Shown piece after piece: positions 12,647-47,910 of a DNA stretch of 53,163 bases; position 1 is the stretch's first letter; each line of letters begins with the position of its first letter. The notes beneath the pieces were generated by a model that saw nothing but the letters and a program-made list of their open reading frames with translations, made no database searches and was not told the origin of the DNA. The translations under genes and the position numbers were made by a program. Source of the DNA: Verrucomicrobiota bacterium. GTDB lineage: Bacteria > Verrucomicrobiota > Verrucomicrobiia > Opitutales > UBA2995. The stretch is from assembly GCA_027622555.1 (NCBI GenBank), contig JAQBYJ010000030.1, positions 1 to 53,163 on the forward strand. The letters run 5' to 3'.

Positions 12647-12654
12647 CTTTAATT

Positions 12655-12987: not shown

Positions 12988-13310
12988 AAAACAAGGATAT
13001 TAAATTTGAACCTGATGATTTTTTAAAGGCGGTCGAAGAGGTGCGAGATCACGTCCAGGGAAAGCGAAAAATCACGCTCCGGACTACAACAATCAATTTA
13101 CCCGAACCGGCTCCTGAAATCACACCCGAAGAAATAGTTGCTGCCCGCGAAGCCCTGAACCTAAGTCAGCCTGTTTTTGCTCAACTGCTCAATGTGCCCA
13201 CTGTAACTGCTATCAGCTGGGAAAAAGGGCGTCGAAAACCATCCGGCGCGGCGTTGAGGTTATTGCAAATTGTCCGAACACATCCCGAAGTACTTTTAGA
13301 AGCGAGTTGA
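12984..13310 (+). CDS. HigA/NadS-like helix-turn-helix antitoxin
   Basis: This 108-aa antitoxin has a C-terminal Xre-type HTH (EIVAAREALNLSQPVFAQLL, then VPTVTAISWEKGRRKPSG). A flexible N-terminal half probably wraps the toxin. It overlaps the toxin gene by 4 bp. Expected roles are toxin neutralisation and repression through the palindrome at 12630. It ends 64 bp before the convergent stop of paralogue P2. Confidence 0.88.
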   Translation: MKNKDIKFEPDDFLKAVEEVRDHVQGKRKITLRTTTINLPEPAPEITPEEIVAAREALNLSQPVFAQLLNVPTVTAISWEKGRRKPSGAALRLLQIVRTHPEVLLEAS

Positions 13311-13374
13311 TTGATCCTGAGATTTAGCAGTTCACCCAAGTGATTCAAAAATTCAGCTGGTTGTTGTGCATCGT

Positions 13375-15516
13375 TCACCAATCCTCCAACAACGCATCAA
13401 AGCGCGGATTGCCCCTCAGGCGGTCGAAGATGAACCACATGCCGATCTCGCGATTAAGAAGAATGAGGCTATCCTGCCGACAGGCTGCCTCCAGGATGTC
13501 GATGGCCTTTTCGGTGTCCCCAAGAATGAGGTAGGCGGTGGCAATATGCGCTTCGGTTTGTGCGCTCATCGTGTATTGGCGCTTTTGCTCAATGACTTTT
13601 TCTCTGGCTGCGCTAATACCCGCCTCCATTCGGCTCCGATCGCCTTCCAGGGCGTAACACATGGGCAGCTGTGACCAGGTGAACGGATCGGCGAGTGGAT
13701 CGGCCTGGGTGTATTCTTCCAGGTAAGTCTTCATCGTTTTGGTTTCGATCAGCCATTTTTCCCGATCTCCCAGTTCGAAGTAAACGAGAGCTCCTATCAT
13801 AGCTCGTTGCCCCATGGACAACCCATAGGGAAATCGAAAAGTTTCTGCCGCAAATGGCTCTATTTGCATATAATTTAAAATGACAGAGTAATCTCGTAAA
13901 ATAAGTGCTGAGAGCCGATCGCGATCTGGATTTTCGTCCTCAGCATCCAACCGTTGGAGTTCAAGCTTCAGCACCTCCATGTCTCCTGTTTCCAGGTAGT
14001 TTGACCGGGCGAGTTGCTGTTGAAAGACTTTCGGACTAATGGATTTTTCAAGCAACGCATGGTCTTGATCCCAAAGTCCCAGTCGTTGGTAAGCAAAAGA
14101 TAAATATATTCTATTGGCACCGTTAAATGGGTCGGAGCTCTGTGCTTCTTCCAATAAAATCCGAGCCTCCGCGATGCGCCCATTTATAAGGAACCTCCTG
14201 GCGAGTCTGGTTTTTGCGTCCAGGAAATTGGGGTCCAGAACCAGGGCCCTGGAGAGAAGATCTATTTCTATTTCCGCATATTCCTCCCCAATATTTCCCA
14301 GGAAACTTTTGGTGTAGAGACCAAGCGCAGAACCTGAGCTCAAGCGCTCCACTTCAGCAAAAGCATAGAGCGCACTATGAAGTAGCTGGGTATTCTGGCG
14401 TCGCGACTCTTCATCCCTCCAGTGAAAGATTCGATTTTGGGCCAAAAAAGACCAGGCCTCGGCAAAGTCAGGATCGAGTCTCACGGCTTTTTCAACCAGC
14501 TCGATTTTCTTTAAGCGATTGCCACTCCCTCCACCTGTTTGACGTGCCTGCACATAATAACCATAAGCTTCCTGGTTCTCGGTGGGACGGTAGTCGATCT
14601 TCTCGATCTCTTCGGGCGATAGGACCGCCTGAAGCTGGCCCGCGATGTCCTTGGCCACCGCTGCCTGGATGGCAAAGATGTCGTCCAACTTTCGATCGTA
14701 ATTCTCGGCCCAGAGGTGTTGGTCATTTTGCGAATCGATCAACTGGACGGTGACAAGCACCTGATCCCCCGCTTTCCGGACCGAGCCTTCCACCAGGTAG
14801 CGGACCCCCAATTCGGCACCGATCTCCTTCATGGTCTTAACGGTGTTGCGGTATTGCAAGGTGGAGGTGCGGGAAATAACAAAGAGCTCACGCACCTTCG
14901 ATAAGTTCGACAGAATATCCTCATGCACCCCATCGGCAAAGAACGCGTTCGCGGCATCCGGACTCATGTTGGAGAGGGGGAGGACGGCAATCGACTTTTC
15001 AGTCGATTGGGTTATCAGGTTATTGGTTAATGGTTCCTGGGATTCTTGGGCGGGTTTGGCCTGGAAATAAAAGAATAGTGCCAGCGCACCGAAGATGAGG
15101 GTGGGGATCAAGGCTCCCACCAGGTAGGCCATCCAGTTGCGTTTCTTCTGTTGAGTATCCGACAGGGGCATTTCGCCCTGTTCTTCGCGAGCGTGCCTGG
15201 TGGTTTTAATACCGTCCGGCGTCAGCTCGAAAGCCCAGGCCAGGATGATGGCAAGAGGGAATCCCAGGATGACACATAAAGTCACCAGCCGAAATGCCCA
15301 CTTGGGAATGTCAAACCAGCCGAAGGTAGAAGATGCGATCTGGATAATCAGCCACGCCACCACCGCATAGGTGATCGCTACGCGGGTGACCTTGCGGCGC
15401 TTCAGCTCGGCCCAGAAGGCGCTCAGTCCTGAGCTTGTCGAAGGGGCGAGGCCGGTGGGCGGTGAGCCTGTCGAATCCGATGGATTTTGATCTTTAGACG
15501 GCTGCTGGTCACTCAT
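13375..15516 (-). CDS. Array paralogue P2: membrane-anchored TolB/FlgO-like and TPR protein
   Basis: This 713-aa protein has the same architecture as P1: basic LKRRKVTRVAITYA, three predicted helices, SIAVLPLSNMSPDAANAFFADG, YLVEGSVRKAG, QHLWAENYDRKLDDIFAIQ, then divergent TPRs and the tail FIFDRLRGNPRFDALLEDW. The N-terminal linker DSTGSPPTGLAPSTSSGLS is encoded by two copies of the TTCGACAAGCTCAGG-type palindrome (15428-15446 and 15461-15477), so repeat DNA has become coding sequence. Its ATG overlaps the stop of the nucleotidyltransferase gene (ATGA), which makes translational coupling likely. Confidence 0.85.
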   Translation of the reverse strand: MSDQQPSKDQNPSDSTGSPPTGLAPSTSSGLSAFWAELKRRKVTRVAITYAVVAWLIIQIASSTFGWFDIPKWAFRLVTLCVILGFPLAIILAWAFELTPDGIKTTRHAREEQGEMPLSDTQQKKRNWMAYLVGALIPTLIFGALALFFYFQAKPAQESQEPLTNNLITQSTEKSIAVLPLSNMSPDAANAFFADGVHEDILSNLSKVRELFVISRTSTLQYRNTVKTMKEIGAELGVRYLVEGSVRKAGDQVLVTVQLIDSQNDQHLWAENYDRKLDDIFAIQAAVAKDIAGQLQAVLSPEEIEKIDYRPTENQEAYGYYVQARQTGGGSGNRLKKIELVEKAVRLDPDFAEAWSFLAQNRIFHWRDEESRRQNTQLLHSALYAFAEVERLSSGSALGLYTKSFLGNIGEEYAEIEIDLLSRALVLDPNFLDAKTRLARRFLINGRIAEARILLEEAQSSDPFNGANRIYLSFAYQRLGLWDQDHALLEKSISPKVFQQQLARSNYLETGDMEVLKLELQRLDAEDENPDRDRLSALILRDYSVILNYMQIEPFAAETFRFPYGLSMGQRAMIGALVYFELGDREKWLIETKTMKTYLEEYTQADPLADPFTWSQLPMCYALEGDRSRMEAGISAAREKVIEQKRQYTMSAQTEAHIATAYLILGDTEKAIDILEAACRQDSLILLNREIGMWFIFDRLRGNPRFDALLEDW
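15428..15477. repeat. Two palindromic repeat units inside P2 coding sequence
   Basis: CCTGAGCTTGTCGAAGGGG (15428-15446) and GGTGAGCCTGTCGAATC (15461-15477) are variants of the dispersed TTCGACAAGCTCAGG palindrome. They encode the PSTSSGL and DSTGSP parts of the cytosolic linker before the first membrane helix. P6 has the same two units at 26718-26737 and 26751-26767. Confidence 0.7.
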
Positions 15517-15965
15517 TCTACATCCTCTCCAAGACTTTCCAGATCAGCCAAGTCTTTCAATCGCCCACTGCTTCGTTTATTGAGAACAAAGTCCTCATAA
15601 CTAATAAATGGAACCGACAATTCGTCCAAAACGAGTTCTATTTTATTGGAGTAGCATTCTAAAAACTCCACACCGGTTGCCTCCGTAATGATTTCTATTC
15701 TCATGGGCGGAGACCCCATTCTGAACACATTTCCCTTTTCGCGAAAAAAATCCTTGGAAACTTCCTTCGGGACACCGAAAGCAAACAGCGCGTTCAACAA
15801 TCGATCCAGGTTTGTTTCGTTGGAACCAATCCAGATATCCATATCTCCGGTTGCTCGAACATAACCATGAACACCCAGAGCCCAACCGCCTACAACGAGA
15901 TACTCAACCTGCTTTTCGATTAATAAACTCAGGAATTCTCTGAAGTCGTCCGGTAGCTGCTTCAT
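15513..15965 (-). CDS. MNT/AbiEii-type nucleotidyltransferase
   Basis: This 150-aa protein of the polymerase-beta nucleotidyltransferase fold has YLVVGG26-27WALGVHGYVRATG, D41-M-D43 metal ligands, a third strand with RIEIITEATGV, and a helical end (FVLNKRSSGRLKDLADLE). Relatives transfer nucleotides to proteins or tRNAs, and several act as toxins or antitoxins. The preceding small gene (15904-16098) is its usual partner and overlaps it by 62 bp. The stop overlaps the start of P2 in ATGA. A decayed copy of the same pair lies at 43915-44322. Confidence 0.8.
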   Translation of the reverse strand: MKQLPDDFREFLSLLIEKQVEYLVVGGWALGVHGYVRATGDMDIWIGSNETNLDRLLNALFAFGVPKEVSKDFFREKGNVFRMGSPPMRIEIITEATGVEFLECYSNKIELVLDELSVPFISYEDFVLNKRSSGRLKDLADLESLGEDVE

Positions 15966-16098
15966 CGCCCCAAAAAGCCACTCGAAGTTGTTGGATGCAA
16001 GCGATCCTTTCGGTTGGAGTTAGTTTCCTGCAATCCTCGAGATAATCTTTGCCGGAGTCCGCTTGTTTTCCCATCTGGACTGAGATTTGTTTGCCCAT
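15904..16098 (-). CDS. Small partner protein of the nucleotidyltransferase
   Basis: This 64-aa protein has the pattern DSGKDYLEDCRKLTPTERIA then CIQQLRVAFWGDE...GRLQRI. It matches the small protein often found just before DUF6036/MNT-type nucleotidyltransferases (general form: YW...TP.ERL..V..LR..Y.G..RLQR). The 62-bp overlap with the downstream gene and that pattern argue that it is real rather than a shadow. A role as antitoxin or regulator of the enzyme is inference. Confidence 0.6.
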   Translation of the reverse strand: MGKQISVQMGKQADSGKDYLEDCRKLTPTERIACIQQLRVAFWGDEAATGRLQRIPEFINRKAG

Positions 16099-16142
16099 TC
16101 TTAAATTTCATTTTTTGGCTATCATTCTTCAACCTTTTTATT

Positions 16143-16176
16143 ATTCCTCCAACAACGCATCAAAGCGCGGATTCCT
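16143..16176 (-). pseudogene. Remnant paralogue tail
   Basis: The 34 bp encode NPRFDALLEE and a stop on the minus strand, and match the end of P2 base by base over most of its length. The match ends at a CCTGAGCAAAGCCGAAGGG palindrome. It lies about 60 bp downstream of the intact tail of P3, so two tails stand in tandem. Confidence 0.65.
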
Positions 16177-16179
16177 TTA

Positions 16180-16200
16180 CCCTGAGCAAAGCCGAAGGGC
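16180..16200. repeat. TTCGACAAGCTCAGG-type palindrome
   Basis: CCCTGAGCAAAGCCGAAGGG forms an imperfect hairpin and is followed by CCTTTGCC. It marks the point where the tail remnant at 16143-16176 loses homology. Confidence 0.6.
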
Positions 16201-16233
16201 CTTTGCCTTTTAATGAAAATCAACGTATGCATG

Positions 16234-18402
16234 TTAATCTTTAAGTAGCGCGTCGAATCTTGGATTTCCCCGCAGCCGGTCGAAGATGAACCAGAGGTCG
16301 AGCTCGCGGTTCACGAAGAGGGGGCCGTCCATTTTGCTGGCGGCTTCCAGGGTTGAGAGGGCTTGGTCGTGGTCGCCGAGAACCAACTGGGAAACGGCGA
16401 TCTGTACCTCGGATTTGGCGTGATCTCTATAACTTCTCCTCGCGGTCAATACGACCTTACGGGCCTGCTCAATCGCTTTTTTCATTTCCTCACCATCGCC
16501 CAGCAGGGCATAACAAATAGCCAAGCTTGCCCATTCATCTGCCGCTTGATACTCCGTGCCGGCCAAGCTATTGACCAGGAAATCCTTGGCCTTTTGAGCC
16601 GCGAGTATTGAGTCCTCTTTTTCACCCAGCTCAAAATGGATCAGGCTCATCATCAGATCCACGGGCTCAAATGTGAGATCATTACCCCAGCTAAAGAATT
16701 CAAACCCTTGGTTATCCCAGTTCTCAAATAGAATCCTGGCTTGCTCCAAGTTTCGTTTTTGCAGCGAAGACCATGCCTTTCCATAAGCATCATCCAAAAT
16801 CCCGGGAAGCCTTTCCATATTTTCAACAAAGGCCCGTTTATCTCCGCTGGAAAGATATTCCATTTCGATCAACATTCTTCTGTCACCGGTTCGCTTGTAC
16901 CGTTTTGTCGACAAGTCCCGCGCCTGTTCCCAAAGGCCTCGTTCTGCATATACCCTTATAAGCAATTGCTCGACTATTTGATCCAGTGGATCGGATTGGA
17001 GGTATTCCTCGAATAGTTGCTGTGCTTCTACCAAACGACCCAGCAAAAAGTATTCTCGCCCCAATGGTCTCTTGGCCAAGGTAAAACCTGGGTCCATAGC
17101 CAAGGTTTTAAGCAACAGATTAATTTTTTCTTCCCCATCTTGATTCACCAAATCCTCATAAAACGACTGAGCCCAGGGGATGAATGCGTTATTGGGATCT
17201 AACCTTTGAGCTATTTGAAGCGCATTCCTTGATTTGGCTACAATTTCGGGGTCATCTCTTCCTGAAAACAAACATTCAACCGACAAGAATGCCCACGCTT
17301 CAGCAAACTCAGGATCCAGGTTCACCGCCTGCTCCAATAACTCGACTTTTTCATCCCAACTGCCTCCGGTTGTGTGGGTCAACTGGCGGTGTTTCAGAAA
17401 CAAGTCGTAGGCTTTCTGATTCTCAGTAGGTATATGGTCAATCAATTCGATCTCTTCCGGGGAAAGAATGGTTCGGAGCTTACCGGCAATCTCTTTGGCG
17501 ATAGCCGCTTGTATGGCAAAGATGTCATCCAGTTTCCGGTTGTAGCTCTCTGCCCAGAGATGACCTCCGGTTTGGCTGTCGATCAACTGAACGGTTACCA
17601 GAACCTGATCATTGGCCCGGCGCACGGAACCCTCGACCAGATAACGGACTCCCAGTTCCTCTCCGATCTGCTGAAGTGTTTTTACGGTATCCCGATACTG
17701 AAGGGTTGAAGTTCTTCCGATAACCAAAAGTTCCTTGATCCTTGAAAGGTTGGTTAACACATCCTCATGTACCCCATCGGCAAAGAAGGCATTCTCCGGA
17801 TCGGGGGACATGTTGGCGAGGGGGAGGACGGCAATGGATTTGTCCAAGTCTGCGACTTGGAGGGACGTGGGACGAGTGTCGGGGGGCGATCCGCCTCCTG
17901 AGACATCCGGCGAGACAGGGGGACCTGATCGAAAGTAGAAGAACAGGGCCAGCGCACCGAAGATGAAAGTGGGAATGGCTGCTCCGAATGCCAGGGTCAG
18001 CCACTTGCGTTTGTTCGTAAATTCATCCGCGGTCGGGGAATCCTTTTTCTCCTGCTGGGCGACCTTGGTGGTCTTTATCCCATCCGGGGTTAGCTCGAAG
18101 GCCCAGGCGATGATCAACGAAACGGGGAATCCCAGCAACACCATCAGCACCACAAACCGAAACGCCCAATCCGGGATACCGAATCCTTCAAAGGTGGTTG
18201 CGGCAATCTGGATGATCAACCAGGCCACCACCGCGTAGACAGTACCTACCCGCACGACGTGCCGGCGCTTCAGCTCTTGCCAGAAGCCCGCGAGGCCGGA
18301 AGGAGGCGATTTTGACTTTCGGAAATTCTGCTGGGAAATACTTTCCTTAGTTTCGTAAGCCCCGTTTTTGGAAAGCGGCTTTTGATCGCCGTTTGGTTCC
18401 AC
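16234..18402 (-). CDS. Array paralogue P3: membrane-anchored TolB/FlgO-like and TPR protein
   Basis: This 722-aa protein starts at a GTG. The N-terminal region (LKRRHVVRVGTVYAVVAW, three helices, then TNKRKWLTLAFGAAIPT) is almost identical to P4, as is the tail (KMDGPLF, RELDLWFIFDRLRGNPRF). The TPR middle, about residues 310-650, differs strongly from P4. A CCAAGTC-TGC-GACTTGG hairpin (17844-17860) encodes VADLD just before SIAVLPLANMSPD. The gene follows an RHH/PIN pair after 34 bp on the same strand, so the three are probably one operon. A tail remnant lies downstream. Confidence 0.85.
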   Translation of the reverse strand: MEPNGDQKPLSKNGAYETKESISQQNFRKSKSPPSGLAGFWQELKRRHVVRVGTVYAVVAWLIIQIAATTFEGFGIPDWAFRFVVLMVLLGFPVSLIIAWAFELTPDGIKTTKVAQQEKKDSPTADEFTNKRKWLTLAFGAAIPTFIFGALALFFYFRSGPPVSPDVSGGGSPPDTRPTSLQVADLDKSIAVLPLANMSPDPENAFFADGVHEDVLTNLSRIKELLVIGRTSTLQYRDTVKTLQQIGEELGVRYLVEGSVRRANDQVLVTVQLIDSQTGGHLWAESYNRKLDDIFAIQAAIAKEIAGKLRTILSPEEIELIDHIPTENQKAYDLFLKHRQLTHTTGGSWDEKVELLEQAVNLDPEFAEAWAFLSVECLFSGRDDPEIVAKSRNALQIAQRLDPNNAFIPWAQSFYEDLVNQDGEEKINLLLKTLAMDPGFTLAKRPLGREYFLLGRLVEAQQLFEEYLQSDPLDQIVEQLLIRVYAERGLWEQARDLSTKRYKRTGDRRMLIEMEYLSSGDKRAFVENMERLPGILDDAYGKAWSSLQKRNLEQARILFENWDNQGFEFFSWGNDLTFEPVDLMMSLIHFELGEKEDSILAAQKAKDFLVNSLAGTEYQAADEWASLAICYALLGDGEEMKKAIEQARKVVLTARRSYRDHAKSEVQIAVSQLVLGDHDQALSTLEAASKMDGPLFVNRELDLWFIFDRLRGNPRFDALLKD
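17844..17860. repeat. In-frame hairpin CCAAGTC-N3-GACTTGG in P3
   Basis: A perfect 7-bp hairpin lies inside the coding sequence of the linker that joins the third membrane helix to the TolB-like domain. The same hairpin occurs at the same place in P6 (26293-26309) and is absent from P1, P2, P4 and P5. Confidence 0.65.
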
Positions 18403-18436
18403 GATTTATCGAAGTGAGGTCATCGTTCGAGCGCTA

Positions 18437-18832
18437 TCAATACTTTAAGTGGCCCAGGAAATTCTTGGGATTTACGGCCGGGATTGGGGATTTTTTGTAA
18501 TCCGCAAGATTTCGGCTGATGATGAAATCCGCCCCCCAAGCCATGGCAGCAGAGGCTTGCAAAGCATCCTCCAGATCCGCCATCGGCAACGCAAGTGCCC
18601 GATGAGCCTCTTTTGTTGCTACTGGCGCGACCTCCACGATCGACAATAATAACTTCAAAAAATCGCGACCACTGTCCTTTAAAAGGTATGCACAGTTTGA
18701 AATTGAATGCCAGGCGATGGCGGCCTGGCCACCTTTCTCAGCCCAACGCAACACATCTGCGCTCTCGGCGAAAAAGGCTGGCCGACGCAATGCCACATCC
18801 AGCAGCACGTCAGTATCAATTAGCCCTTTCAT
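18437..18832 (-). CDS. PIN-domain (VapC-like) toxin
   Basis: This 131-aa PIN-fold ribonuclease starts MKGLID6-TDVLLDVALRRP with the first acidic ligand. The second acidic cluster lies in MADLEDALQASAA, and the family end GADFIISRNLADYKKSPIPAVNP follows. The gene overlaps the antitoxin stop by 1 nt (TGATG). P3 starts 34 bp downstream on the same strand. Confidence 0.87.
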   Translation of the reverse strand: MKGLIDTDVLLDVALRRPAFFAESADVLRWAEKGGQAAIAWHSISNCAYLLKDSGRDFLKLLLSIVEVAPVATKEAHRALALPMADLEDALQASAAMAWGADFIISRNLADYKKSPIPAVNPKNFLGHLKY

Positions 18833-19059
18833 CAGCGAAGGTATTTTTTTTGCAGTGCCTCTTGTTTTGTATCCCCGGACTTGGATGGCTTGAGCGTCGA
18901 GCTACCAATCATCGAATCTACGATGGAACCGTCTGGTTCCTGCTGTTCGGAAAGAAGACTTTCAATGAGCCCGGAAACGCTGGCCCTTCGTCGTCGAGCA
19001 AGGCGTTTGGCCCGCTCATGTATTTTCGGATCGAGAGTTATGGTGACTCTGCTTTTCAT
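18832..19059 (-). CDS. Ribbon-helix-helix antitoxin
   Basis: This 75-aa protein starts with an RHH/CopG-like DNA-binding domain: MKSRVTITLDPKIHERAKRL, then ARRRRASVSGLIESLL. The polar C-terminal tail probably binds the PIN toxin. The first gene of the pair is preceded within 4 bp by an inverted repeat (19063-19089) that is a likely autoregulatory operator. Confidence 0.85.
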   Translation of the reverse strand: MKSRVTITLDPKIHERAKRLARRRRASVSGLIESLLSEQQEPDGSIVDSMIGSSTLKPSKSGDTKQEALQKKYLR

Positions 19060-19062
19060 AGG

Positions 19063-19089
19063 TATGCATTGAAAAAATAATAATGCATA
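19063..19089. promoter_or_regulatory. Inverted repeat, candidate RHH operator
   Basis: TATGCATT (19063-19070) and AATGCATA (19082-19089) are perfect inverted 8-mers separated by 11 AT-rich bases. They lie 3 bp upstream of the antitoxin start, so binding would block initiation of the operon. Confidence 0.65.
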
Positions 19090-19172
19090 TTGTCAAGTTG
19101 GCTGTCTGAGACCTCGGGGATTCTTTGTGCGGGGTAAACCGTCTTACGACTCTCCGAGTTCCGAGGCAAATT

Positions 19173-19291
19173 GTAGGAGTAGCGGTTTTAGCTGCGAAAC
19201 GAGAACCTGGGATTCCCGACTATACCGAGGAGCTTGCTCCGACAGCGAAGCGTTTCGAGTGCAACGACACCAACACAACAGTCGGTCCTAC
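19173..19291. repeat. GTAGGA/TCCTAC-bounded palindromic region
   Basis: GTAGGAG at 19173 and TCCTAC ending at 19291 bound a stretch with several short inverted segments, among them GAGGAGCTTGCTCC and GCGAAGCGTTTCG. No coding pattern is convincing. This element and the tail remnant at 19379-19475 account for most of the gene-free stretch 19090-19487. Confidence 0.5.
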
Positions 19292-19378
19292 ATATGTTCA
19301 TGAAAAGTAATTCCCCGAAGAAAAAATCGGACCAGACACCATAATGTATCCCTACCCTCCAAAACCTCGCGCTTTACT

Positions 19379-19475
19379 TTATCTTTCCAACAATTTATCC
19401 AACCGCGGATTCCCCGCCTTGCCGCGCCATAGCCCATTGGGCGACGGCGGGAGCCGTGTCGAAAGGTCGAAAATG
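19379..19475 (-). pseudogene. Remnant paralogue tail with internal insertion
   Basis: The minus strand reads GNPRLDKLLER and a stop (19379-19417). After roughly 46 foreign bases that form a hairpin-rich GC segment, the match to the paralogues resumes with the bases for FDLS (about 19463-19475). It stands 12 bp downstream of the intact tail of P4. Confidence 0.65.
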
Positions 19476-19487
19476 AGCGCATAAATA

Positions 19488-21596
19488 TTAATCTTTTAGT
19501 AAGGCGTCAAATCTCGGATTACCTCTTAGCCGGTCGAAGATGAACCAGAGGTCGAGCTCGCGGCTGACGAAGAGAGGACCGTCCATCTTGCTGGCGGCTT
19601 CCAGAATTTGGATGGCTTTGTCGTGATTCCCGAGGACGAGGAAAACAATGGCGCTCATAACCTCGAACTCCGTCATTTGATTTAGGCTTGAAGGTTTCTT
19701 CGCTCTGCCTTCGCTCAATAGTGACATTGCTCGTTCACGATCACCCATCAGTCCGTGGCAAATTGCCAACTTTGCCCACTGATTTACACTGGCATTTGGT
19801 CGGGCGCTTGATTCCGCCAATTTGAGCCTGGCTTTTTCCGCTTCGGTCATCCACGCCGTTCGATCACTGCGTTCGAAGTGAACAAGCGCTTTAGCCAGTT
19901 CCCGGGGGGAGATAGCCAGATCGCTGAATATGCCAAAATCCAGGCTAGTGTTGGACGGATCCATTTCGGAGAGGCTGTTCAGTGCGCGGTCGTAATCCCG
20001 GGAGATGAGGGCCATTTCGCATTGGGTTTTTGGACTATCCAGGTAACCGGGTATTTGGCCGATCCCTTCGAGGAGCGCATTTTTGTCTCCGGTTTGGAAA
20101 TACTCCGTGGCAACTTTCCTTTCCAACCAGTAGTCCTCCAATTCTCCTCCCCGTGCGACGTTTTTCCGGGTTAATTCGTTGGCTTTGTCCCACGAGCGAA
20201 GCCTTTGGTAGGTTCTTAGAAGGAAGGTGTTGACCCTGCGGGATAGAGGGTCCGTGCGAAGCATGCTTTCAAAATAATATGCCGCCTCAGAATATCGCCT
20301 CATACCTAGATATTGCCTCCCTAATTGAAACTGAGCATAAAAATGATTGGGGTCCATGGAGAGGATACGCAACAGCAGGCGTATGGCCCCTTCAGTATCC
20401 TCTTCCTCTAATAATAGAAATTCGGTTTTTGCAAAAAGAACATCCGGCGAATCCGGTGCCAATTTTTCCGCTTCCTTGAGCGCTGCGTGAGCCTTAGCCA
20501 AAACCTCATCCGCATCCTTCTCTCTGATCCCCCTGATGCGCCCCCACCAAAACATGCTTTCATTTGCCAGAAGCGCCCAGGCTTCAGCAAAATTGGGATC
20601 GAGGGCCACGCTTTGCTCCAAGGCCGTGATTTTCGCTTCGCCCCCGTCGGGGCCGGCCGTTTCGATCAACTGCCGGGCCTTCACATAATAATCATAGGCT
20701 TCCTGGTTCTTGGTGAGCCGTCTTTCGATCTGGACGATTTCCTCAGGAGAAATCACCGCCTGCAATCGGCCGGCAACGTCCTTTGCAATAGAGGCCTGGA
20801 TCGCAAAAATATCATCAAGCTCCCGGCTATAATTCTCCGCCCAGATGTGGCCTTCGGTCCGGGCGTCGATCAACTGAACGGTTACCAGCACCCGGTCGCG
20901 GGCGCGCCGGACCGAGCCTTCCAAAAGGTAGCGCACGTTCAATTCTTCACCGATTTGCTGGAGGGTTTTAACCGTGTCCCGGTATTGCAGGGTCGAGGTA
21001 CGTCCGATGACATGCAGCTCCTTGATCTTCGAAAGGTTGGTTAAGACATCCTCATGCACCCCGTCGGCAAAAAACGCGTTCTCCGGGTCGGGACTCATGT
21101 TTGTAAGGGGAAGGACAGCAATCGACTTGTCCAGTTCGGTGAATTGATTGGACGAGGGAACTGTATCGGAACGGAAATAGAAGTACAAAGCCAGAGTTCC
21201 AAAAATGAGGGTTGGAATGGCTGCTCCGAATGCCAGGGTCAGCCACTTGCGTTTGTTCGTAAATTCATCCGCGGTCGGGGAATCCTTTTTCACCTGCTGG
21301 GCGACCTTGGTCGTTTTGATCCCTTCAGGTGTCAGTTCGAAGGCCCAGGCGATGATCAGCGAAACAGGGAAACCCAGCAACACCATCAGCACCACAAACC
21401 GAAACGCCCAGTCCGGTATACCAAAACCTTCAAAGGTGGTTGCGGCAATCTGGATGATCAACCAGGCCACGACGGCATAAACGGTTCCCACCCGGACGAC
21501 ATGACGCCGCTTCAACTCTTGCCAGAAGGCGGAGAAGCCCGTGGGCTTGGGATGATCAGCGGGTTGGGGAGGATCAGGAGAAGAATCGTTATCCAT
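19488..21596 (-). CDS. Array paralogue P4: membrane-anchored TolB/FlgO-like and TPR protein
   Basis: This 702-aa protein has a GGAAGGAA ribosome binding site 8 bp before the ATG. The basic N-terminus, three helices and TolB-like domain (SIAVLPLTNMSPDPENAFFADG, YLLEGSVRRAR, GHIWAENYSRELDDIFAIQ) closely match P3, and so does the tail (EAASKMDGPLFVSRELDLWF). The TPR middle is distinct, with a GRQYLGMRRYSEAAYYFESM repeat. The gene follows DUF4926 after 26 bp on the same strand, suggesting an operon DUF6883-DUF4926-P4. Confidence 0.85.
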   Translation of the reverse strand: MDNDSSPDPPQPADHPKPTGFSAFWQELKRRHVVRVGTVYAVVAWLIIQIAATTFEGFGIPDWAFRFVVLMVLLGFPVSLIIAWAFELTPEGIKTTKVAQQVKKDSPTADEFTNKRKWLTLAFGAAIPTLIFGTLALYFYFRSDTVPSSNQFTELDKSIAVLPLTNMSPDPENAFFADGVHEDVLTNLSKIKELHVIGRTSTLQYRDTVKTLQQIGEELNVRYLLEGSVRRARDRVLVTVQLIDARTEGHIWAENYSRELDDIFAIQASIAKDVAGRLQAVISPEEIVQIERRLTKNQEAYDYYVKARQLIETAGPDGGEAKITALEQSVALDPNFAEAWALLANESMFWWGRIRGIREKDADEVLAKAHAALKEAEKLAPDSPDVLFAKTEFLLLEEEDTEGAIRLLLRILSMDPNHFYAQFQLGRQYLGMRRYSEAAYYFESMLRTDPLSRRVNTFLLRTYQRLRSWDKANELTRKNVARGGELEDYWLERKVATEYFQTGDKNALLEGIGQIPGYLDSPKTQCEMALISRDYDRALNSLSEMDPSNTSLDFGIFSDLAISPRELAKALVHFERSDRTAWMTEAEKARLKLAESSARPNASVNQWAKLAICHGLMGDRERAMSLLSEGRAKKPSSLNQMTEFEVMSAIVFLVLGNHDKAIQILEAASKMDGPLFVSRELDLWFIFDRLRGNPRFDALLKD

Positions 21597-35420: not shown

Positions 35421-36584
35421 TTACTCCAGGGAATCAAGAAATTGGGTTAGACCCATGGCTGTGACCGACTCCGAAAGAGGATAGGAATTCCCTTCAGGAA
35501 TCAGGTAGGTGCCTCTCGTTGCCTCGAGCGTACTCATGCTTTCGATAAACCCAGGAGTCAGTTTTGGAGAAAGCGTGCGTTTGATTTCGATCGCGTGCTT
35601 CTCGCCCGAGGCATTTTCCAATACCAGATCCACTTCGGCACCCGCGTGAGTGCGGTAGTGAGTGCAAATCGTACTCGAAGGAAGTAAGGCAAGTATCTGT
35701 TCGATACAATAACCCTCCCAGGAATGACCACAGATTGGGTGGCCAAGAACTTTTTCCAAGCCATGTAATCCGACAAGAGCATGGAGTAAGCCTGTATCAC
35801 GCCAGTAGACTTTGGGCGCTTTCACAAGTCGTTTTCCTGCATTGCGACTCCAGGCCGAAAGGGTGCGCACAAGGTAAAGCCCTTCGAGTAGTTCCAGATA
35901 GCGACGGGCGGTCTTTCCATCAATTCCCAGAGATGCACCGAGTTTGCTCAGATTCAAAGTAGCTCCCTGCTGATGCGCGAGCATGGAACAGAAGCGGAGC
36001 AGCTGTAGTGGTGTTGCAGCTACGCCCAGTTGAGGCAAGTCGCGCTCAACATAGCTGGTTATAAAGTCATCGCACCACTGGTTTGCAGAAGCGTCGTCTT
36101 CAGCTAGAAAACTTTCAGGGTATCCTCCCCGGTACCAATGTTGGTCGATGGTGGCATTTGGGTTTTTCAACTCAGTGAGATTCAATGGATGCAATTCCAG
36201 GTAGCTGATCCGACCAGCCAGTGTTTCCGAGCTTTGCATCAACAGGTCCGGGGAGGCTGATCCCAGGATTAAAAATTGAGAAGCCTTCTCACCCTTTCGT
36301 CGACGCTCATCTACCAGGCTTCTGAGCACTGGGAAAACTTCAGGGAGACGCTGAATCTCATCAAGAATCACGAGGTGATCATCAAGCTTGCTCAGGTAAA
36401 GCTCGGGATCGTCAAGCTTAGCAATGTCCGAAGGGCGTTCAAGATCCAGATAATGAGAGGGCTTGTCCAATTTCAAACTACGGGCCAGGGTTGTTTTACC
36501 CACCTGCCGCGAACCCAAGAGCGCCACCACTGGTGTTCGGGAGATTCTTTGAATAAGCGTAGATTCCAATCTTCGAGTTAGCAT
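35421..36584 (-). CDS. AAA ATPase with DUF4143 C-terminal domain, second copy
   Basis: This 387-aa protein has Walker A G24-SRQVGKTT and Walker B LVILD75-E76, then LILGSASPDLL and a helical middle with KLGASLGIDGKTARRYLELL. The DUF4143 end has THAGAEVDLVLE and AIEIKRT, again an E-x-D...E-x-K pattern. It is the same family as 9230-10378 but clearly divergent. It is flanked by exported carbohydrate genes on the other strand, and an inverted repeat lies 11 bp before its start, mirroring the first copy. Confidence 0.87.
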   Translation of the reverse strand: MLTRRLESTLIQRISRTPVVALLGSRQVGKTTLARSLKLDKPSHYLDLERPSDIAKLDDPELYLSKLDDHLVILDEIQRLPEVFPVLRSLVDERRRKGEKASQFLILGSASPDLLMQSSETLAGRISYLELHPLNLTELKNPNATIDQHWYRGGYPESFLAEDDASANQWCDDFITSYVERDLPQLGVAATPLQLLRFCSMLAHQQGATLNLSKLGASLGIDGKTARRYLELLEGLYLVRTLSAWSRNAGKRLVKAPKVYWRDTGLLHALVGLHGLEKVLGHPICGHSWEGYCIEQILALLPSSTICTHYRTHAGAEVDLVLENASGEKHAIEIKRTLSPKLTPGFIESMSTLEATRGTYLIPEGNSYPLSESVTAMGLTQFLDSLE

Positions 36585-42804: not shown

Positions 42805-43875
42805 CTAAGCACTCAACTTGAATATAGAGTCTGACTTATAAAGTAACACTTCGTTGAAGACAGTACAAGCCCCCAATAACTTTCCATCCGCGGAGAAACC
42901 GACACCCTTTGGACCCTCTTCACCCACCAGGGTAGCGATCGAAGCCATTTTGCGCATAGGCTCATGCTTGGAAGGTAGGCGATGCACCTCAACACTGCCA
43001 TTTTCATCAGTTACTGCCATAAAGGGATCCTTAGGATGAAAGGCAACTGAGTGAAGTGCCCGATCACCAAAGTGATAAACATGAGCTGGTTCACTTTCTA
43101 TTCCGGGATTACCCCCGCTATGGCATTTAAAAAGTGATATCCCGGATTTCCCTTTGGGGTCTTCATTTAAATAAAATTCCTTGTAAGTAACTATGAGCGA
43201 CTCTCCATCTGATGAAAAATCGATACCCTGTGGCGTCGCCAGACCGTGAAGGACTAATTCTTCGACAGGGATTGACTGAAAAGGTACCGATTCAAATTCA
43301 AAACTGGTTCCTTTCCTTCGATAAAGCGTAATACCAAATCGACCACGGTTGGCAACCGCCAGCCAATTGCCTGAAGGATGAATGGCCACTCCTCCTGGAT
43401 AGCTCAACCTGGATTCATCTCCCCAAATATGAAAAACCGGTTCTACTTCTTTTTGATCCACGTTGTCGGCGGAGCTCAATTCAAACACTGCCAATGAATG
43501 GCAATCGCGCCCAACTCCGATAACATAGTTTTCGCATGGAGTGAAAATCGCATCGTGCACAAAGTTTAGCCATTTGCCGTTGATAATAGAGCAAGTGGGG
43601 ATTGAATCGAATTGGTCTTTGGAGTCGCTCGACTTTGAATAAACAGTCAAAGAAGAACCACCAGAGTTTCCGACGACGATGTGGTTTCCAGATTTACTAA
43701 ATGCAACCGATTCAGGACGCAGTAGCCCAGACATGCTTCCAGTAATCGAACGATATGGAACAGGTAATCCCATTAAAAAAGCCCAAATCCAAGGAAACGG
43801 AAGTCTTCTCCTCGCTGCTGAAAGAACTCTTTCGAATAAGCGTCGTGGTTTAGATTTGTTATGCAGGATGGCCAT
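42805..43875 (-). CDS. Seven-bladed beta-propeller protein, function unknown
   Basis: This 356-aa protein has regular propeller blades, each with a pattern like ESVAFSKSGNHIVVGNSGG, PGGVAIHPSGNWLAVANRG, PQGIDFSSDGESLIVTY, HSVAFHPKDPFMAVTDENG and PKGVGFSADGKLLGACTVF. This resembles lactonase or YVTN/SMP-30-like folds. The N-terminus (RRLFERVLSAARRRLPFPWI) is basic and amphipathic and is no clear signal peptide. The sequence does not show which small molecule or partner it binds. It is unusual in being surrounded by decayed genes. Confidence 0.65.
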   Translation of the reverse strand: MAILHNKSKPRRLFERVLSAARRRLPFPWIWAFLMGLPVPYRSITGSMSGLLRPESVAFSKSGNHIVVGNSGGSSLTVYSKSSDSKDQFDSIPTCSIINGKWLNFVHDAIFTPCENYVIGVGRDCHSLAVFELSSADNVDQKEVEPVFHIWGDESRLSYPGGVAIHPSGNWLAVANRGRFGITLYRRKGTSFEFESVPFQSIPVEELVLHGLATPQGIDFSSDGESLIVTYKEFYLNEDPKGKSGISLFKCHSGGNPGIESEPAHVYHFGDRALHSVAFHPKDPFMAVTDENGSVEVHRLPSKHEPMRKMASIATLVGEEGPKGVGFSADGKLLGACTVFNEVLLYKSDSIFKLSA

Positions 43876-43914: not shown

Positions 43915-44091
43915 TCATGAATGAGAATTGGATCTGGAAGAGACAAAAATACCACCGCCCAATTGATTTAACAAAGGATTGATAGAAGAAGGAAAAATAA
44001 CAGCGTAACCACCGACGACCAAGTAATCCACGCTGTTGGCGTTGAGCGCCTTTATAAAATCCAGAAAGTCCGGGTTTAGGTCAATGTCCAT
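43915..44091 (-). pseudogene. Truncated MNT-type nucleotidyltransferase
   Basis: A 58-codon frame starts MDIDLNPDFLDFIKALNANS followed by VDYLVVGGYAV, the same beginning as the intact nucleotidyltransferase at 15513-15965 (DDFREFLSLL, YLVVGGWAL). It breaks down into unrelated residues before the DxD metal motif. It begins 3 bp after its partner gene, so a second copy of the pair existed here and has decayed. Confidence 0.7.
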
Positions 44092-44094
44092 GGT

Positions 44095-44322
44095 CTACCG
44101 TTTTCGGGCTCTATGGACAGTCTTGTCGAGACGAGGTGGAAATGCATAAGGATATCCGTATGCGACGCTATTGAGATAAGCAGCAGCAGAAAATCGATCG
44201 GCAACTGGCTGTCGCGACCAATACTCAGAGTTTCGCTCTTCAGTTTGAGCGTGCGAGCGCATACTAAAGGCACTTCGGTCGAGTCGAAAGCGTTCCATTT
44301 GAATACGCTGCAAATTGCTCAT
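44095..44322 (-). CDS. Small partner protein of the truncated nucleotidyltransferase
   Basis: This 75-aa protein (start chosen at ATG 44322; an upstream ATG would overlap the divergent sulfatase region) has SEYWSRQPVADRFSAAAYLN followed by SVAYGY and RLDKTVHRARKR. This is the spacing YW..(Q/T)P..R....LR..YGY..RL.R of the small proteins that precede DUF6036-like nucleotidyltransferases. Its enzyme partner is broken, so it may be a leftover antidote or may be decaying. Confidence 0.55.
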   Translation of the reverse strand: MSNLQRIQMERFRLDRSAFSMRSHAQTEERNSEYWSRQPVADRFSAAAYLNSVAYGYPYAFPPRLDKTVHRARKR

Positions 44323-44434
44323 AGCTTGATCAATGCAAAAGACCCGATAAATCCGAGCAATGTCCAATGTTTTCATTGTGCTTGCTGGAGTTCCGTCAGT
44401 TTCAGAATATCCATATCACTTCATGAATTGCCTA

Positions 44435-45871
44435 ATGACGCCCAAGTTTCTTCTTTCAATTATCTTTTTCATCGGATTCGGCCTTTGTGCAAAGCAGCCC
44501 AACATCCTTTTCTTCCTCGTCGATGACCTTGGCTACATGGACATAGGGGCGAACAATCCCGACACCTTCTACGAGACACCCAACATCGATCAACTCGCGG
44601 CAACCGGTATGCGTTTCACCGATGGGTATGCAGCCAATCCTGTGTGTAGTCCGACGCGTTACAGCATTATGACCGGCAAGTATCCCAGCCGGGTCGATGC
44701 GACCAATTTTTTCTCGGGAGCTAGGGAAGGATTATTCAAACCCGCTCCGCTGAATGACGTGATGGCATTAGAAGAAGTTACCCTGGCAGAAGCACTCAAG
44801 ACAGTAGGCTACAAAACCTTCTTCGCCGGGAAATGGCACCTCGGTTCCACAGAAGAATACTGGCCAGAGAACCAAGGCTTCGAGATCAACAAAGGTGGTT
44901 GGGCACTTGGTGCGCCTAGGTACGGAAGTAAGTATTTCTCTCCTTATGGAAATCCACGCCTGGAGGATGGGCCTGAAGGCGAACACCTACCCCATCGACT
45001 GGCCGACGAAACGATGAAGTTCATGGAAGACAACAAGGACGGACCGTTTTTAGCCTACCTTTCCTTTTATTCGGTTCATACACCTTTGATGGCACCCGAC
45101 CACCTGGTTAAAAAATACGAGGAGAAAGCGAAACGACTTGGCCTCGTGGGCAAAAAAGAATTTGCCCATGAAGAACAGGTCCTGCCGATTCAACAGGAAC
45201 GCCAGGTTCGCATTTCTCAACAGCACGCCATTTACGCCGCTATGATGGAATCGATGGATACGAACCTTGGGCGCGTGCTGGATAAACTCGAAGCGCTCGG
45301 GATCGCGGACAATACCATCGTTTGTTTTACCTCAGACAACGGTGGTCTCTCCACCAGCGAGGGTCTGCCTACTTCCAACCTCCCGTTGCGTGGCGGCAAG
45401 GGCTGGACTTACGAAGGTGGCATCCGCGAACCCTACCTCATCAAATGGCCGGGAGTAACCAAACCCGGAAGCGTTAACACCACACCCGTCTGCAGTATCG
45501 ATTTTTACCCCACACTTCTGGAAATCGCCGGAGCGGATTTCGATCACCCCATTGATGGGATCTCCCTTGTTCCGGAATTACGTCAAAACGGTTCTATCGA
45601 ACGCGAGGCCCTCTACTGGCACTATCCTCATTACAGCAATCAGGGAGGTATTCCTTCAGGGGCCATCCGCATGGGAGATTGGAAACTCATCGAACGCTAC
45701 GAAGACGGACGCCTGCATCTGTATAACTTGAAGGACGATATCGGAGAAAAGAACGACCTGGCAGAGAAACACCCCGATCGCGTTTCCTCAATGAAAGCCA
45801 GGCTACATACATGGTATCGTGAAGTAGACGCAAAATTCCTTCGACCAAAAGAACCCTGGAGGCCGAAATGA
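44435..45871 (+). CDS. Arylsulfatase A-like sulfatase
   Basis: This 478-aa sulfatase has signal peptide FLLSIIFFIGFGLCA, then NILFFLVDDLGYMDIGANN and the nucleophile motif C71-S-P-T-R with YSIMTGKYPSR. GKWHLG, YSVHTPLMAPD, TSDNGGLST and HLYNLKDDIGEKNDLAE complete the family set. I prefer the ATG at 44435 because upstream starts would bury the signal peptide, although none has a strong ribosome binding site. It faces away from the decayed nucleotidyltransferase pair. Confidence 0.88.
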   Translation: MTPKFLLSIIFFIGFGLCAKQPNILFFLVDDLGYMDIGANNPDTFYETPNIDQLAATGMRFTDGYAANPVCSPTRYSIMTGKYPSRVDATNFFSGAREGLFKPAPLNDVMALEEVTLAEALKTVGYKTFFAGKWHLGSTEEYWPENQGFEINKGGWALGAPRYGSKYFSPYGNPRLEDGPEGEHLPHRLADETMKFMEDNKDGPFLAYLSFYSVHTPLMAPDHLVKKYEEKAKRLGLVGKKEFAHEEQVLPIQQERQVRISQQHAIYAAMMESMDTNLGRVLDKLEALGIADNTIVCFTSDNGGLSTSEGLPTSNLPLRGGKGWTYEGGIREPYLIKWPGVTKPGSVNTTPVCSIDFYPTLLEIAGADFDHPIDGISLVPELRQNGSIEREALYWHYPHYSNQGGIPSGAIRMGDWKLIERYEDGRLHLYNLKDDIGEKNDLAEKHPDRVSSMKARLHTWYREVDAKFLRPKEPWRPK

Positions 45872-46034: not shown

Positions 46035-47117
46035 CTATAGATATGTTATCAGTCTAGGGTTTTTCCAGTTCTTAACTACAGGCGACCTGAATTTACATTG
46101 AATTATGCCTTCCTTTTTAAGTTGGCTGATTACAGGTGCCGCCAGCTTACATGTGACTCCAGACTCAAAGCAAAGCTCGGCTATATCCATTTCGTTCGCA
46201 AATCGCTTTTCTCTAAAGCCATCAGATAATGCCTCTTCAAAGACAGCAATTTTCTTTGGAACCATCACATCCAAATTCAACAAAAGCTCGTCTTCTTTAA
46301 TCTTTTCGCGATCAACATCGAAGTTTGCTTCTCCAGCTATCTTGTCATTTTTCCATGCAACCTCCAAAAACTTGTTAATACCCAATGGATGCTTACTCCC
46401 AAAAATTAATCCGTAAATATTCCCAGAGTCCTTTTTAATTGAAAAATGACCTAAGTAAACTTTTGAAGACGGAGGTATCAGATTCTTGTAATATCTGAAG
46501 GCTTCTCTATGGATATGAAAAGAGTCCTCCGGCTTGCCGATTTTCTGCTTTATTGCAGGATGATCTCTAAACCTATGGAGAGTATTTGTAGAAAGAAAAA
46601 AGATAAAGTCTGCTCGTGGGCAATTAATCAAGGTGCTAAAAACACTATCGCTAACTGCATCAACCCCACATTGATCTGCTATGAGTAACTTGGCTATTCT
46701 TCGATTATTTAAGATGTTTCCATTCTCTTTTAGAGCTGATTCAAAATCGATAGACCGAATATCTAAAGCAACTCCTGTTACCGTAAGGCCTTCATTTTCA
46801 ATTTTGGATTTCAGGTGATCTATCTTTCCCCTATCGAGATCAAAGAAATGAACAACCTTTTTAACGTTCTCCCAACTTGCTAGACGCTGATCAAGCGCTC
46901 CTTGAAGCTGCTTAAGAATTCGTACCGGTGAACCAGATACGTTATTTGCGTCTTGTCCAGGCCCCGCAAAGAAATCGAAAATGTGCAATTCGTCAAAAGG
47001 AGCATCTGGTCGCGATAAAAATACTGGAATCCATGCTTTAACGTAGGCCTCGAATATTTCCAACTTTGTCAGTGTTCCTCCATCATACGGATTATCGTGA
47101 AAGTCGCAAGCCTTCAT
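46035..47117 (-). CDS. Three-Cys-motif partner protein TcmP
   Basis: This 360-aa protein matches the TcmP family: LTKLEIFEAYVKAWIPVFLS at the start, HIFDFFAGPGQD with a methyltransferase-like strand, LLIADQCGV, and FIFFLSTNTLHRF. TcmP is named for its companion, a three-cysteine protein, and that gene lies directly upstream (4-bp gap). The function is unknown. The DNA is visibly AT-rich: 46321-46380 has 21 G or C in 60. Confidence 0.85.
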   Translation of the reverse strand: MKACDFHDNPYDGGTLTKLEIFEAYVKAWIPVFLSRPDAPFDELHIFDFFAGPGQDANNVSGSPVRILKQLQGALDQRLASWENVKKVVHFFDLDRGKIDHLKSKIENEGLTVTGVALDIRSIDFESALKENGNILNNRRIAKLLIADQCGVDAVSDSVFSTLINCPRADFIFFLSTNTLHRFRDHPAIKQKIGKPEDSFHIHREAFRYYKNLIPPSSKVYLGHFSIKKDSGNIYGLIFGSKHPLGINKFLEVAWKNDKIAGEANFDVDREKIKEDELLLNLDVMVPKKIAVFEEALSDGFREKRFANEMDIAELCFESGVTCKLAAPVISQLKKEGIIQCKFRSPVVKNWKNPRLITYL

Positions 47118-47121
47118 CTAA

Positions 47122-47910
47122 TCAAGCGAAACTAAGGTGAGAGAGTAAATCGAGCCGCCTTTCCTTCGAGGCAACCTCGTTGACAGCAGACTCAGGAAAC
47201 TCGCTGTAAGTCCTGCCATCAAGTTCACGACCCGTTTCCTTTTTTCGAACTCCTCCCCATTGTTTGAAAAAGAAGGGTACTTTGTATGAACAGCAAAGCT
47301 TGCGAATATTTCTTACCCATTCCTTTTTCAGAGGGCGAGCACCTCTGCCACTTTCTCCGCCAACTATCACCCAATCAATACCGGATAAGTCGAAAGTGCC
47401 AAGGTCTTCTAATAGCGGCTCAACAGACAGAAAGGTATGCGTTGGGTTAGATCTTCTTAGTTCCGAGACACGTGGAATACCATACTGCTTATCCTCTACA
47501 CTAACTCCCCACCAAATATGCGAGGCTTCCGCACCTTTCTTCAGCTTCCCAGCCAGCAGGTTAGCCATACGCGTGGATCGCTTGGTGAGAATCTGGTATG
47601 TATGCCAATTGGCCGCCAGCATTACATCTACTACCTTTTCAATATACTCATCGGATATGTCTTCGTGAAATAGATCGCTCATTGAGTTCACAAAGATCTT
47701 CTTCGGACGAGACCAGCGAATAGGATCACCCAATTTTTCAGGAACGAGTCTAAGATCGAACCCAAACTCAAACGGATGTCCAAGAGTTCCTCTAAATCTT
47801 TCAGCAAGAGTCTCCGCGTAACAGTGCTTACAACCCGGACTTACCTTGGTACATCCCCGCACTGGATTCCATGTCGCATCTGTCCATTCTATTTTAGATG
47901 TTTGACTCAT
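47122..47910 (-). CDS. Phage Gp37/Gp68-family three-cysteine protein (DUF5131)
   Basis: This 262-aa protein starts with IEWTDATWNPVRGCTKVSPG followed by CKHCYAE, giving C-x7-C-x2-C as in radical-SAM-like Gp37/Gp68 proteins. Later motifs are IFVNSMSDLFHEDI, QILTKRS, WWGVSVED, VEPLLEDLG, VIVGGESG and FFFKQWGG. The family is common in phages and mobile islands, and no reaction has been proven. It forms an operon with tcmP. Lower G+C than neighbours suggests recent transfer. Confidence 0.88.
   Translation of the reverse strand: MSQTSKIEWTDATWNPVRGCTKVSPGCKHCYAETLAERFRGTLGHPFEFGFDLRLVPEKLGDPIRWSRPKKIFVNSMSDLFHEDISDEYIEKVVDVMLAANWHTYQILTKRSTRMANLLAGKLKKGAEASHIWWGVSVEDKQYGIPRVSELRRSNPTHTFLSVEPLLEDLGTFDLSGIDWVIVGGESGRGARPLKKEWVRNIRKLCCSYKVPFFFKQWGGVRKKETGRELDGRTYSEFPESAVNEVASKERRLDLLSHLSFA

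What the first reader, a model, noticed from the sequence alone, without database searches (positions are those of the whole stretch)
43915..44322. Second, decayed copy of the nucleotidyltransferase pair 28 kb away
Seen: a small partner-like gene followed 3 bp later by a truncated nucleotidyltransferase that breaks after VVGGYAV. This shows that the pair moves or duplicates within the genome and that the enzyme half is lost first, as expected for a harmful component (inference).
Basis: partly seen in the sequence, partly recalled or inferred. Interest (0 to 1): 0.5.

Follow-up and report, generated by a model that had tools for sequence, protein, structure and literature searches.

The report
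Decayed copy of toxin-like gene pair
This is the wreck of a very common but little-studied bacterial two-gene module that looks like a toxin and its antidote: the enzyme gene has been cut off while the small antidote-like gene is still whole, a pattern that recurs in related genomes and points to which half is harmful.

Summary
On the minus strand an intact 67-aa partner ORF (44095-44298) is followed 3 nt later by a DUF6036-type nucleotidyltransferase (NTase) cut after native codon 33, before the catalytic D-x-D; 25 unrelated codons follow. The partners of the two window pairs are homologous (E 5.8e-7). It is not a copy of the 15.5-kb pair: the genome's six copies fall into three clades, and this one is sister to an intact pair in another species. 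The module is widespread: of 80 NTase loci from many phyla, 78 have the partner directly upstream, nearly always overlapping the NTase start. None of 22 partners matches a Pfam, NCBIfam or PHROG model. The NTase best resembles MenT1, the tRNA-modifying toxin of MenAT1, with corresponding active-site residues. In two genome sets, 43 loci have a broken NTase; the partner is open in 38 (35 on a stricter view), and no NTase with upstream room lacked a small upstream ORF. Best explanation: a MenAT1-like toxin-antitoxin module losing its toxin (toxicity untested). dN/dS shows the truncation here is recent, so continued selection on the partner is unproven.

The parts
44095..44298 (-). small partner (antitoxin candidate), 67 aa, intact reading frame; ends 3 nt before the NTase start codon
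43993..44091 (-). native 5' part of the truncated nucleotidyltransferase, codons 1-33 (...VVGGYAVIF); D-x-D and the C-terminal Lys/Asp motifs are missing
43915..43992 (-). unrelated tail: 25 foreign codons and stop after the break
15513..15965 (-). intact DUF6036-type nucleotidyltransferase of the other pair, 150 aa, active-site residues present
15904..16098 (-). intact partner of the other pair, 64 aa, overlapping the NTase start by 62 nt in another frame
42805..43875 (-). gene downstream of the break (beta-propeller, NHL/WD40-like); no homologue at E<=1e-20 in five other genus genomes
44360..45871 (+). divergent sulfatase upstream of the pair

Best explanation
The feature is a recently broken copy of a conserved two-gene module: a small partner protein and, overlapping or directly after it, a minimal nucleotidyltransferase with a MenT1-like fold and active site. 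Shown: the anatomy, the homology, the near-invariable pairing and the one-sided pattern of decay. Inferred: the NTase is a growth-arresting toxin (most likely one that adds nucleotides to tRNA, as MenT1 does) and the partner is its antitoxin, made first and translationally coupled through the overlap, binding across the active site. If so, a lesion in the NTase is tolerated because the antidote alone is harmless, whereas loss of the partner beside a working NTase is not; this copy lost its catalytic residues by a truncation after codon 33 and survives as an orphan antitoxin-like gene.
For: Pairing: the partner profile hits directly upstream in 78 of 80 NTase loci from named genomes of many phyla, one of the other two having no upstream DNA; the partner stop lies 41-59 nt past the start of the NTase match, in the +2 frame, in 77 of the 78. 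Fold: AlphaFold model pLDDT 92; Foldseek top match is MenT1 in the MenAT1 complex, E 2.5e-5; VIA-align Z 12.9 and 12.6 for MenT1, tied with Thermotoga TM1012 at 12.3 and above ANT(2'') at 9.7. Profile against PDB sequences: MenT1 E 1e-4, the only hit below 0.01. Active site: MenT1 T39, D41, K137, D152 align with T39, D41, K130, D141 of the intact window NTase, invariant in 13 of 13 sequences; in a wider set of 30, T39, K130 and D141 stay invariant and D41 is in at least 90%. D41A, K137A and D152A abolish MenT1 toxicity (PMC10435456, section 7). Organisation: MenA1 is also a short (68 aa) antitoxin encoded upstream of its toxin. Decay census: order set (372 genomes): 45 partner loci, 29 with an uninterrupted NTase and 16 with a broken one, partner open in 13 of the 16; phylum set (387 genomes): 80 partner loci outside the order, 50 with a full NTase, 27 broken, 3 set aside, partner open in 25 of the 27. 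By the same rule the partner is open in 29 of 29 and 50 of 50 loci with a full NTase. From the NTase side: all 32 strong C-terminal matches of the order set have the partner; of 57 NTase matches without a profile-level partner in the phylum set, the 55 with upstream room all have a small ORF at or near the expected place. P(0 partner-only lesions of 43) is 8e-6 under a length-proportional null.
Against: No toxicity or binding was measured. The partner is not detectably related to MenA1 (no hit at E<=10 in PDB sequences; no Foldseek match with E below 4 for a middling model of pLDDT 76). Aminoglycoside and lincosamide nucleotidyltransferases share the fold, and Pfam Aminoglyc_resit weakly matches 8 of 13 members. 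dN/dS in the 33 remnant codons (0.11 against the G002 pair) is no higher than in the partner (0.18), so the truncation is recent and does not show that the orphan partner is under selection. The partner is itself damaged in 5 of the 43 broken loci (C11, G075:C118, G242:C28, G618:C279, G681:C271), and in 3 more (G605:C38, G505:C15, G549:C60) its first 10-14 profile positions are unmatched; a few others lack the last positions (G644:C66, G475:C1, G616:C97). Some lesions do remove partner-side sequence: an internal NTase fragment without partner (G322:C237), G618:C279 and a C-terminal piece G491:C34 (not inspected). In 37 of the 55 phylum-set cases the upstream ORF is judged a partner by position only, and not all of those NTases were checked to be complete. 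NTase classes were assigned partly by reading translations; independence assumed is approximate (several loci share a genome).
Confidence: 0.6

Rival explanations
1. Not a toxin-antitoxin pair: the NTase is an ordinary enzyme (RNA, nucleotide or antibiotic modification, or stress/defence) with a small helper subunit; it is dispensable, and the NTase is hit more often because it is more than twice as long.
For: Same fold as ANT(2'') and LnuA; dN/dS shows the loss here is recent, so an intact partner may simply not have decayed yet; toxicity untested.
Against: A length-proportional null predicts about 24% partner-only lesions; 0 of 43 were seen. 10 of 12 mapped NTase breaks fall in the first 43 of 147 columns, close behind the partner's end. 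The residues essential for MenT1 toxicity are conserved.
Confidence: 0.27
2. Roles reversed: the small partner is the toxin and the NTase is an antitoxin that modifies it, as in HEPN-MNT (type VII) systems.
For: MNT proteins do act as antitoxins that nucleotidylate HEPN toxins (PMC7641770 and PMC11586414, starts of abstracts in a search listing).
Against: The partner persists with an open frame in 38 of 43 loci where the NTase is broken, which should be harmful if it were the toxin; none of 22 partners matches any Pfam model, HEPN included.
Confidence: 0.06
3. The break after GGYA[V/L] is a recurrent recombination site or the end of a mobile unit: three of the genome's six copies end there.
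For: C11 and C20 end after the same codon and this copy two codons later; a REP-like hairpin lies about 15 nt past the C20 break.
Against: Against close relatives the break here is two codons later; the sequences after the three breaks do not resemble each other; breaks elsewhere in the order lie at columns 9-78; no separate C-terminal half was found in the genome at the thresholds used.
Confidence: 0.04
4. Assembly artefact: the truncation is a misjoin in a fragmented assembly.
For: The genome is in 238 contigs; no reads were available.
Against: The break lies inside a 53-kb contig; comparable truncations occur in many other assemblies.
Confidence: 0.03

Closest known systems
MenAT1 (Rv0078B-Rv0078A) of Mycobacterium tuberculosis, short antitoxin plus tRNA-modifying NTase toxin (PMC10435456, PMC11375011)
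   Same: Small antitoxin encoded upstream of a minimal NTase; same fold; corresponding active-site residues including the T39 phosphoacceptor; 16-19% identity in structural alignments.
   Different: Partner not detectably related to MenA1; NTase about 45 aa shorter (150 against 196); the window NTase is matched by Pfam DUF6036 and not by AbiEii; function untested.
AbiE (type IV TA; AbiEi/AbiEii)
   Same: NTase; PADLOC AbiEii models weakly match 4 of 13 members.
   Different: Partners are 59-70 aa with no AbiEi or other Pfam domain (22 tested); the NTase is about half the length of the 290-310-position models, of which only some 65 positions match.
HEPN-MNT (type VII TA)
   Same: Two small genes, one a minimal NTase.
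   Different: Partner matches no HEPN model, and it is the NTase, not the partner, that is lost.
Orphan antitoxins of Klebsiella pneumoniae (PMC7192599, passages)
   Same: Antitoxin-like genes left without a paired toxin are common there (2253 occurrences).
   Different: Those belong to other, partly tested TA families.

Membership tests
Pfam DUF6036 (PF19502) nucleotidyltransferases | Score above the curated cut-off | tested here: met
   Intact window NTase 31.5 bits against a cut-off of 23.6; 11 of 13 family members match at E<=0.01. The 58-aa remnant itself gives no match.
MenT toxins (DUF1814) | NTase core with GG...T-x-D-x-D and C-terminal Lys and Asp motifs | tested here: met
   Aligned to MenT1 T39/D41/K137/D152; invariant in 13 of 13, D41 at least 90% in 30. 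Met by the intact pair; lost in the decayed copy.
MenT toxins (DUF1814) | Match to the DUF1814/AbiEii model (that DUF1814 is now AbiEii, PF08843, is recalled) | tested here: not met
   No AbiEii match at E<=1 for the window NTase; 2 of 13 members, best E 0.0013.
MenAT1 | MenA1-related antitoxin | tested here: inconclusive
   No PDB sequence hit to MenA1 at E<=10; no Foldseek match, but the partner model is of middling quality.
MenAT / toxin-antitoxin systems | Toxin arrests growth and antitoxin neutralises it | not testable with these tools
   Needs expression assays.
MenAT / toxin-antitoxin systems | Conserved two-gene unit; toxin not found without antitoxin | tested here: met
   78 of 80 loci paired; partner open in 29 of 29 and 50 of 50 loci with a full NTase; small upstream ORF in 55 of 55 further NTase matches with room.
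AbiE (type IV) | AbiEi/COG5340-type antitoxin | tested here: not met
   Partners 59-70 aa; 0 of 22 match any Pfam model at 0.01.
HEPN-MNT (type VII) | HEPN-domain partner | tested here: not met
   0 of 22 partners match any Pfam model at 0.01; the HEPN catalytic motif was not looked for separately.

The most novel reading that the evidence does not exclude
The orphan partners are not passing debris but kept by selection: NTase genes are eroded up to the partner's stop codon, and the partner is held as an immunity (anti-addiction) gene against intact copies in the same or invading genomes. One overlapping toxin-antitoxin family, missing from the family libraries searched, would then be continually converted into resident antidotes across many phyla.
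Probability: 0.2. Interest if true: 0.65.

Novelty: new variant of a known kind. Interest (0 to 1): 0.42.

Why it matters
The decayed copy by itself is ordinary. None of 22 partners tested has a model in Pfam, NCBIfam or PHROGs, and the NTase is filed as 'of unknown function'. The one-sided decay gives a testable assignment of roles, and the MenT1-like active site gives a concrete biochemical prediction (nucleotide addition to tRNA, possible auto-phosphorylation at T39). It would extend the MenAT kind of translation control well beyond mycobacteria.

Tried and rejected
Recurrent break point: the three truncations of this genome looked like a site-specific event; set aside because the exact positions differ against close relatives, the sequences after the breaks do not resemble each other, and breaks elsewhere are spread.

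Within-genome copying of the 15.5-kb pair: rejected for this copy by the tree. Shared surroundings: the downstream gene has no homologue at E<=1e-20 in five other genus genomes; the sulfatase has a 78% match in G003, but only the sulfatase is shared there, so no empty site could be shown. Selection on the orphan partner by dN/dS: uninformative, since the remnant NTase codons are as constrained as the partner. Partner homology to MenA1 or another solved structure: none found; the hits listed are mostly antibody chains, a viral late protein and a haemagglutinin component over short stretches, and are taken as chance. Mobile carriers: no phage record matches the window NTase at E<=1e-6 and 9 of 72,556 plasmid records do at E<=1e-10.

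Dropped before counting: two partner matches whose translations look unrelated (G329:C50, G251:C62); three phylum-set loci, one at a contig end (G542:C582) and two (G630:C22, G512:C8) where the match lies after, not before, an NTase. The 57 unpartnered NTases of the phylum set were picked by eye from the list, which was itself cut at its end; two of the 57 (L365, L405) lie at contig ends and two (L394, L406) met looser criteria only.

Literature: no paper of the library contains 'DUF6036'; searches on MNT/antitoxin, MenA1/MenT1, DUF2204 and orphan antitoxins showed no listing that names this small partner; absence from print is claimed only for these searches, of which at most 20 papers each were listed. 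PMC10435456: outline, sections 6, 7 and 11 and passages read; PMC11375011: abstract and passages; PMC2701414 and PMC7192599: passages; all others only in listings.

Full report
What is there. On the minus strand at 44298-43915 lies a 67-aa ORF (MERFRLDRSAFSMRSH...RARKR), its stop, 3 nt, and an ATG that opens a 58-aa frame. The first 33 codons of that frame are the N-terminus of a nucleotidyltransferase (NTase) up to GGYAVIF; the remaining 25 do not fit the family. The catalytic D-x-D and everything after it are missing. The pair on contig C7 of the same genome is the intact form of this architecture: DNA similarity of 72% runs from the partner's ATG to 3 nt past GGYAV and then stops. The other window pair (NTase 15513-15965, partner 15904-16098) is intact but built differently: its genes overlap by 62 nt.

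All copies in the genome. An N-terminal profile finds six clear copies (E<=3.1e-15; the next candidate has E 0.2; the profile was built from five of the six): C7 and the 15.5-kb pair intact; C64 with an internal deletion between two short repeats beginning GCAACCGG; and three cut near GGYA[V/L]: this one, C11 (partner also decayed) and C20 (partner open). A tree of partner plus NTase N-terminus places the six in three clades, at least three label changes being forced by well-supported branches; this copy is sister to an intact pair in another species of the genus (G002:C725, support 97/82), with C7 next (99/87), while the 15.5-kb pair groups with C64, a copy of another genus genome (G005) and others. 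The two window pairs are therefore old paralogues, not a recent copy and its source. C64 is close to the 15.5-kb pair in sequence and the similarity continues into the adjoining gene, which suggests a duplication, although the tree does not make them exclusive sisters.

The partners are one family. Profile-profile comparison of the two partner types gives probability 92%, E 5.8e-7 over 43 columns. A profile built without any member of this subtype still hits this partner at E 1.2e-5 and the C7 partner at 2.3e-7. None of 22 partners matches Pfam, NCBIfam or PHROGs at E<=0.01.

How general the pair is. The partner profile hits directly upstream in 78 of the 80; one of the two others has no upstream DNA. 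In 77 of the 78 the partner's stop lies 41-59 nt past the start of the NTase match, in the +2 frame. Here and in a few relatives the partner instead ends just before the NTase.

Which half is lost. Three profiles (NTase N-terminus, partner, NTase C-terminus) were run over the same 372 genomes of the order. Of 45 partner loci (47 rows less two that look unrelated), 29 have an uninterrupted NTase and 16 a broken or missing one. With one rule for all (a start codon, and the partner profile matched from position 16 or less to within 10 of its end), the partner is open in 13 of the 16 and in 29 of the 29. From the C-terminal side, 32 matches below E 1e-26 were found and all 32 have the partner; one internal NTase fragment (G322:C237) has none. 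A second set of 387 genomes of the phylum gave 91 partner rows, 11 of them in the order and already counted; of the other 80, 50 have a full NTase and 30 do not. Of these 30, three were set aside; in the other 27 the partner is open in 25 by the same rule, and it is open in 50 of the 50 with a full NTase. Three of the 25 (G605:C38, G505:C15, G549:C60) have an unmatched N-terminus and could be counted as damaged, which would leave 35 of 43 open overall instead of 38. Six loci carry internal deletions that leave both ends of the NTase (G605:C145, G562:C28, G505:C15, G507:C94, G604:C82, G644:C66). In the opposite direction, 57 NTase matches of that set without a profile-level partner were inspected: 18 are recognised by partner HMMs at E<=0.01; 53 have a small ORF of at least 45 aa ending at -20 to +62 of the NTase start, two more have one by looser criteria (L394, L406), and two lie at contig ends. 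So no NTase with enough upstream DNA lacked an upstream small ORF. Under a simple length-proportional null, 0 partner-only lesions of 43 has probability 8e-6, and 10 of 12 mapped breaks within the first 43 of 147 columns has p 1.6e-4; both assume independence.

What limits this. dN/dS between this copy and G002:C725 is 0.18 in the partner and 0.11 in the 33 remnant NTase codons. The remnant is thus still as constrained as a working gene, the truncation is recent, and an intact partner here does not prove that it is being kept. For the pair G002:C776/C801, both with broken NTases, the partner gives 0.09-0.11, with the same caveat. The assembly is fragmented and was not checked against reads.

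What it probably does. The model of the intact window NTase (pLDDT 92) matches MenT1 of M. tuberculosis best (Foldseek E 2.5e-5; VIA-align Z 12.9, rmsd 3.3 over 135 residues, tied with TM1012 at 12.3). By profile, MenT1 is the only solved structure below E 0.01. The MenT1 residues T39, D41, K137 and D152 correspond to T39, D41, K130 and D141 here, invariant in 13 of 13 family members; in a wider set of 30, D41 is in at least 90% and the other three in all. In MenT1, D41A, K137A and D152A abolish toxicity, T39 is phosphorylated in the presence of MenA1, and MenA1 is a 68-aa antitoxin encoded upstream. The working hypothesis is a MenAT1-like toxin-antitoxin pair with an antitoxin of a different or unrecognisably diverged family. 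The partner model (pLDDT 76) shows two helices, 17-24 and 28-43, and no solved relative. That the partner outlives the NTase speaks against the reversed roles of HEPN-MNT systems.

Verdict. The decayed copy is ordinary; the family it belongs to is a widespread, apparently unnamed variant of the NTase toxin-antitoxin kind.

Noticed in passing
window 12655-13310 (+): A second toxin-antitoxin-like pair: RelE-like gene (PF06296, E 4e-4, below its cut-off) and an MqsA/HTH-type antitoxin (PF15731, E 1.4e-7), overlapping by 4 nt.
   Followed up: partly
window 10375-21596 (-): Tandem array of four related membrane TPR-like proteins (SIAVLPxxNMSPD motif) with the intact NTase pair, the RelE/MqsA-like pair and a PIN-domain gene (18437-18832) lodged between them; the C64 copy sits beside the same kind of gene (the TPR label is recalled).
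   Followed up: no
L014 (G000:C20) positions 1018, 2820, 3985: REP-like hairpins (GTAGGAGCGGCTTTATGCCGCGAT type); one lies about 15 nt after the truncated NTase of C20.
   Followed up: no
window 46035-47910 (-): A DUF5131 gene (47122-47910, PF07505, E 8e-94) followed 4 nt later by a 360-aa gene with no Pfam match at E<=0.001.
   Followed up: no
window 9230-10378 (+) and 35421-36584 (-): Two AAA_14/DUF4143 ATPase genes; a similar-looking protein is encoded near the C20 remnant (by eye).
   Followed up: no
several of L355-L383 and L408 (phylum-set NTase loci): A divergent partner subtype with a ...SRL..VWPLT.EV.SLS...ERRLQR... pattern keeps the same +53 overlap, so position is conserved although sequence is not.
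   Followed up: partly
G217:C90 (L123): An internal deletion fuses the partner frame to what look like the last codons of the NTase (..TNLEELRKRNK), a natural partner-NTase tail fusion.
   Followed up: no
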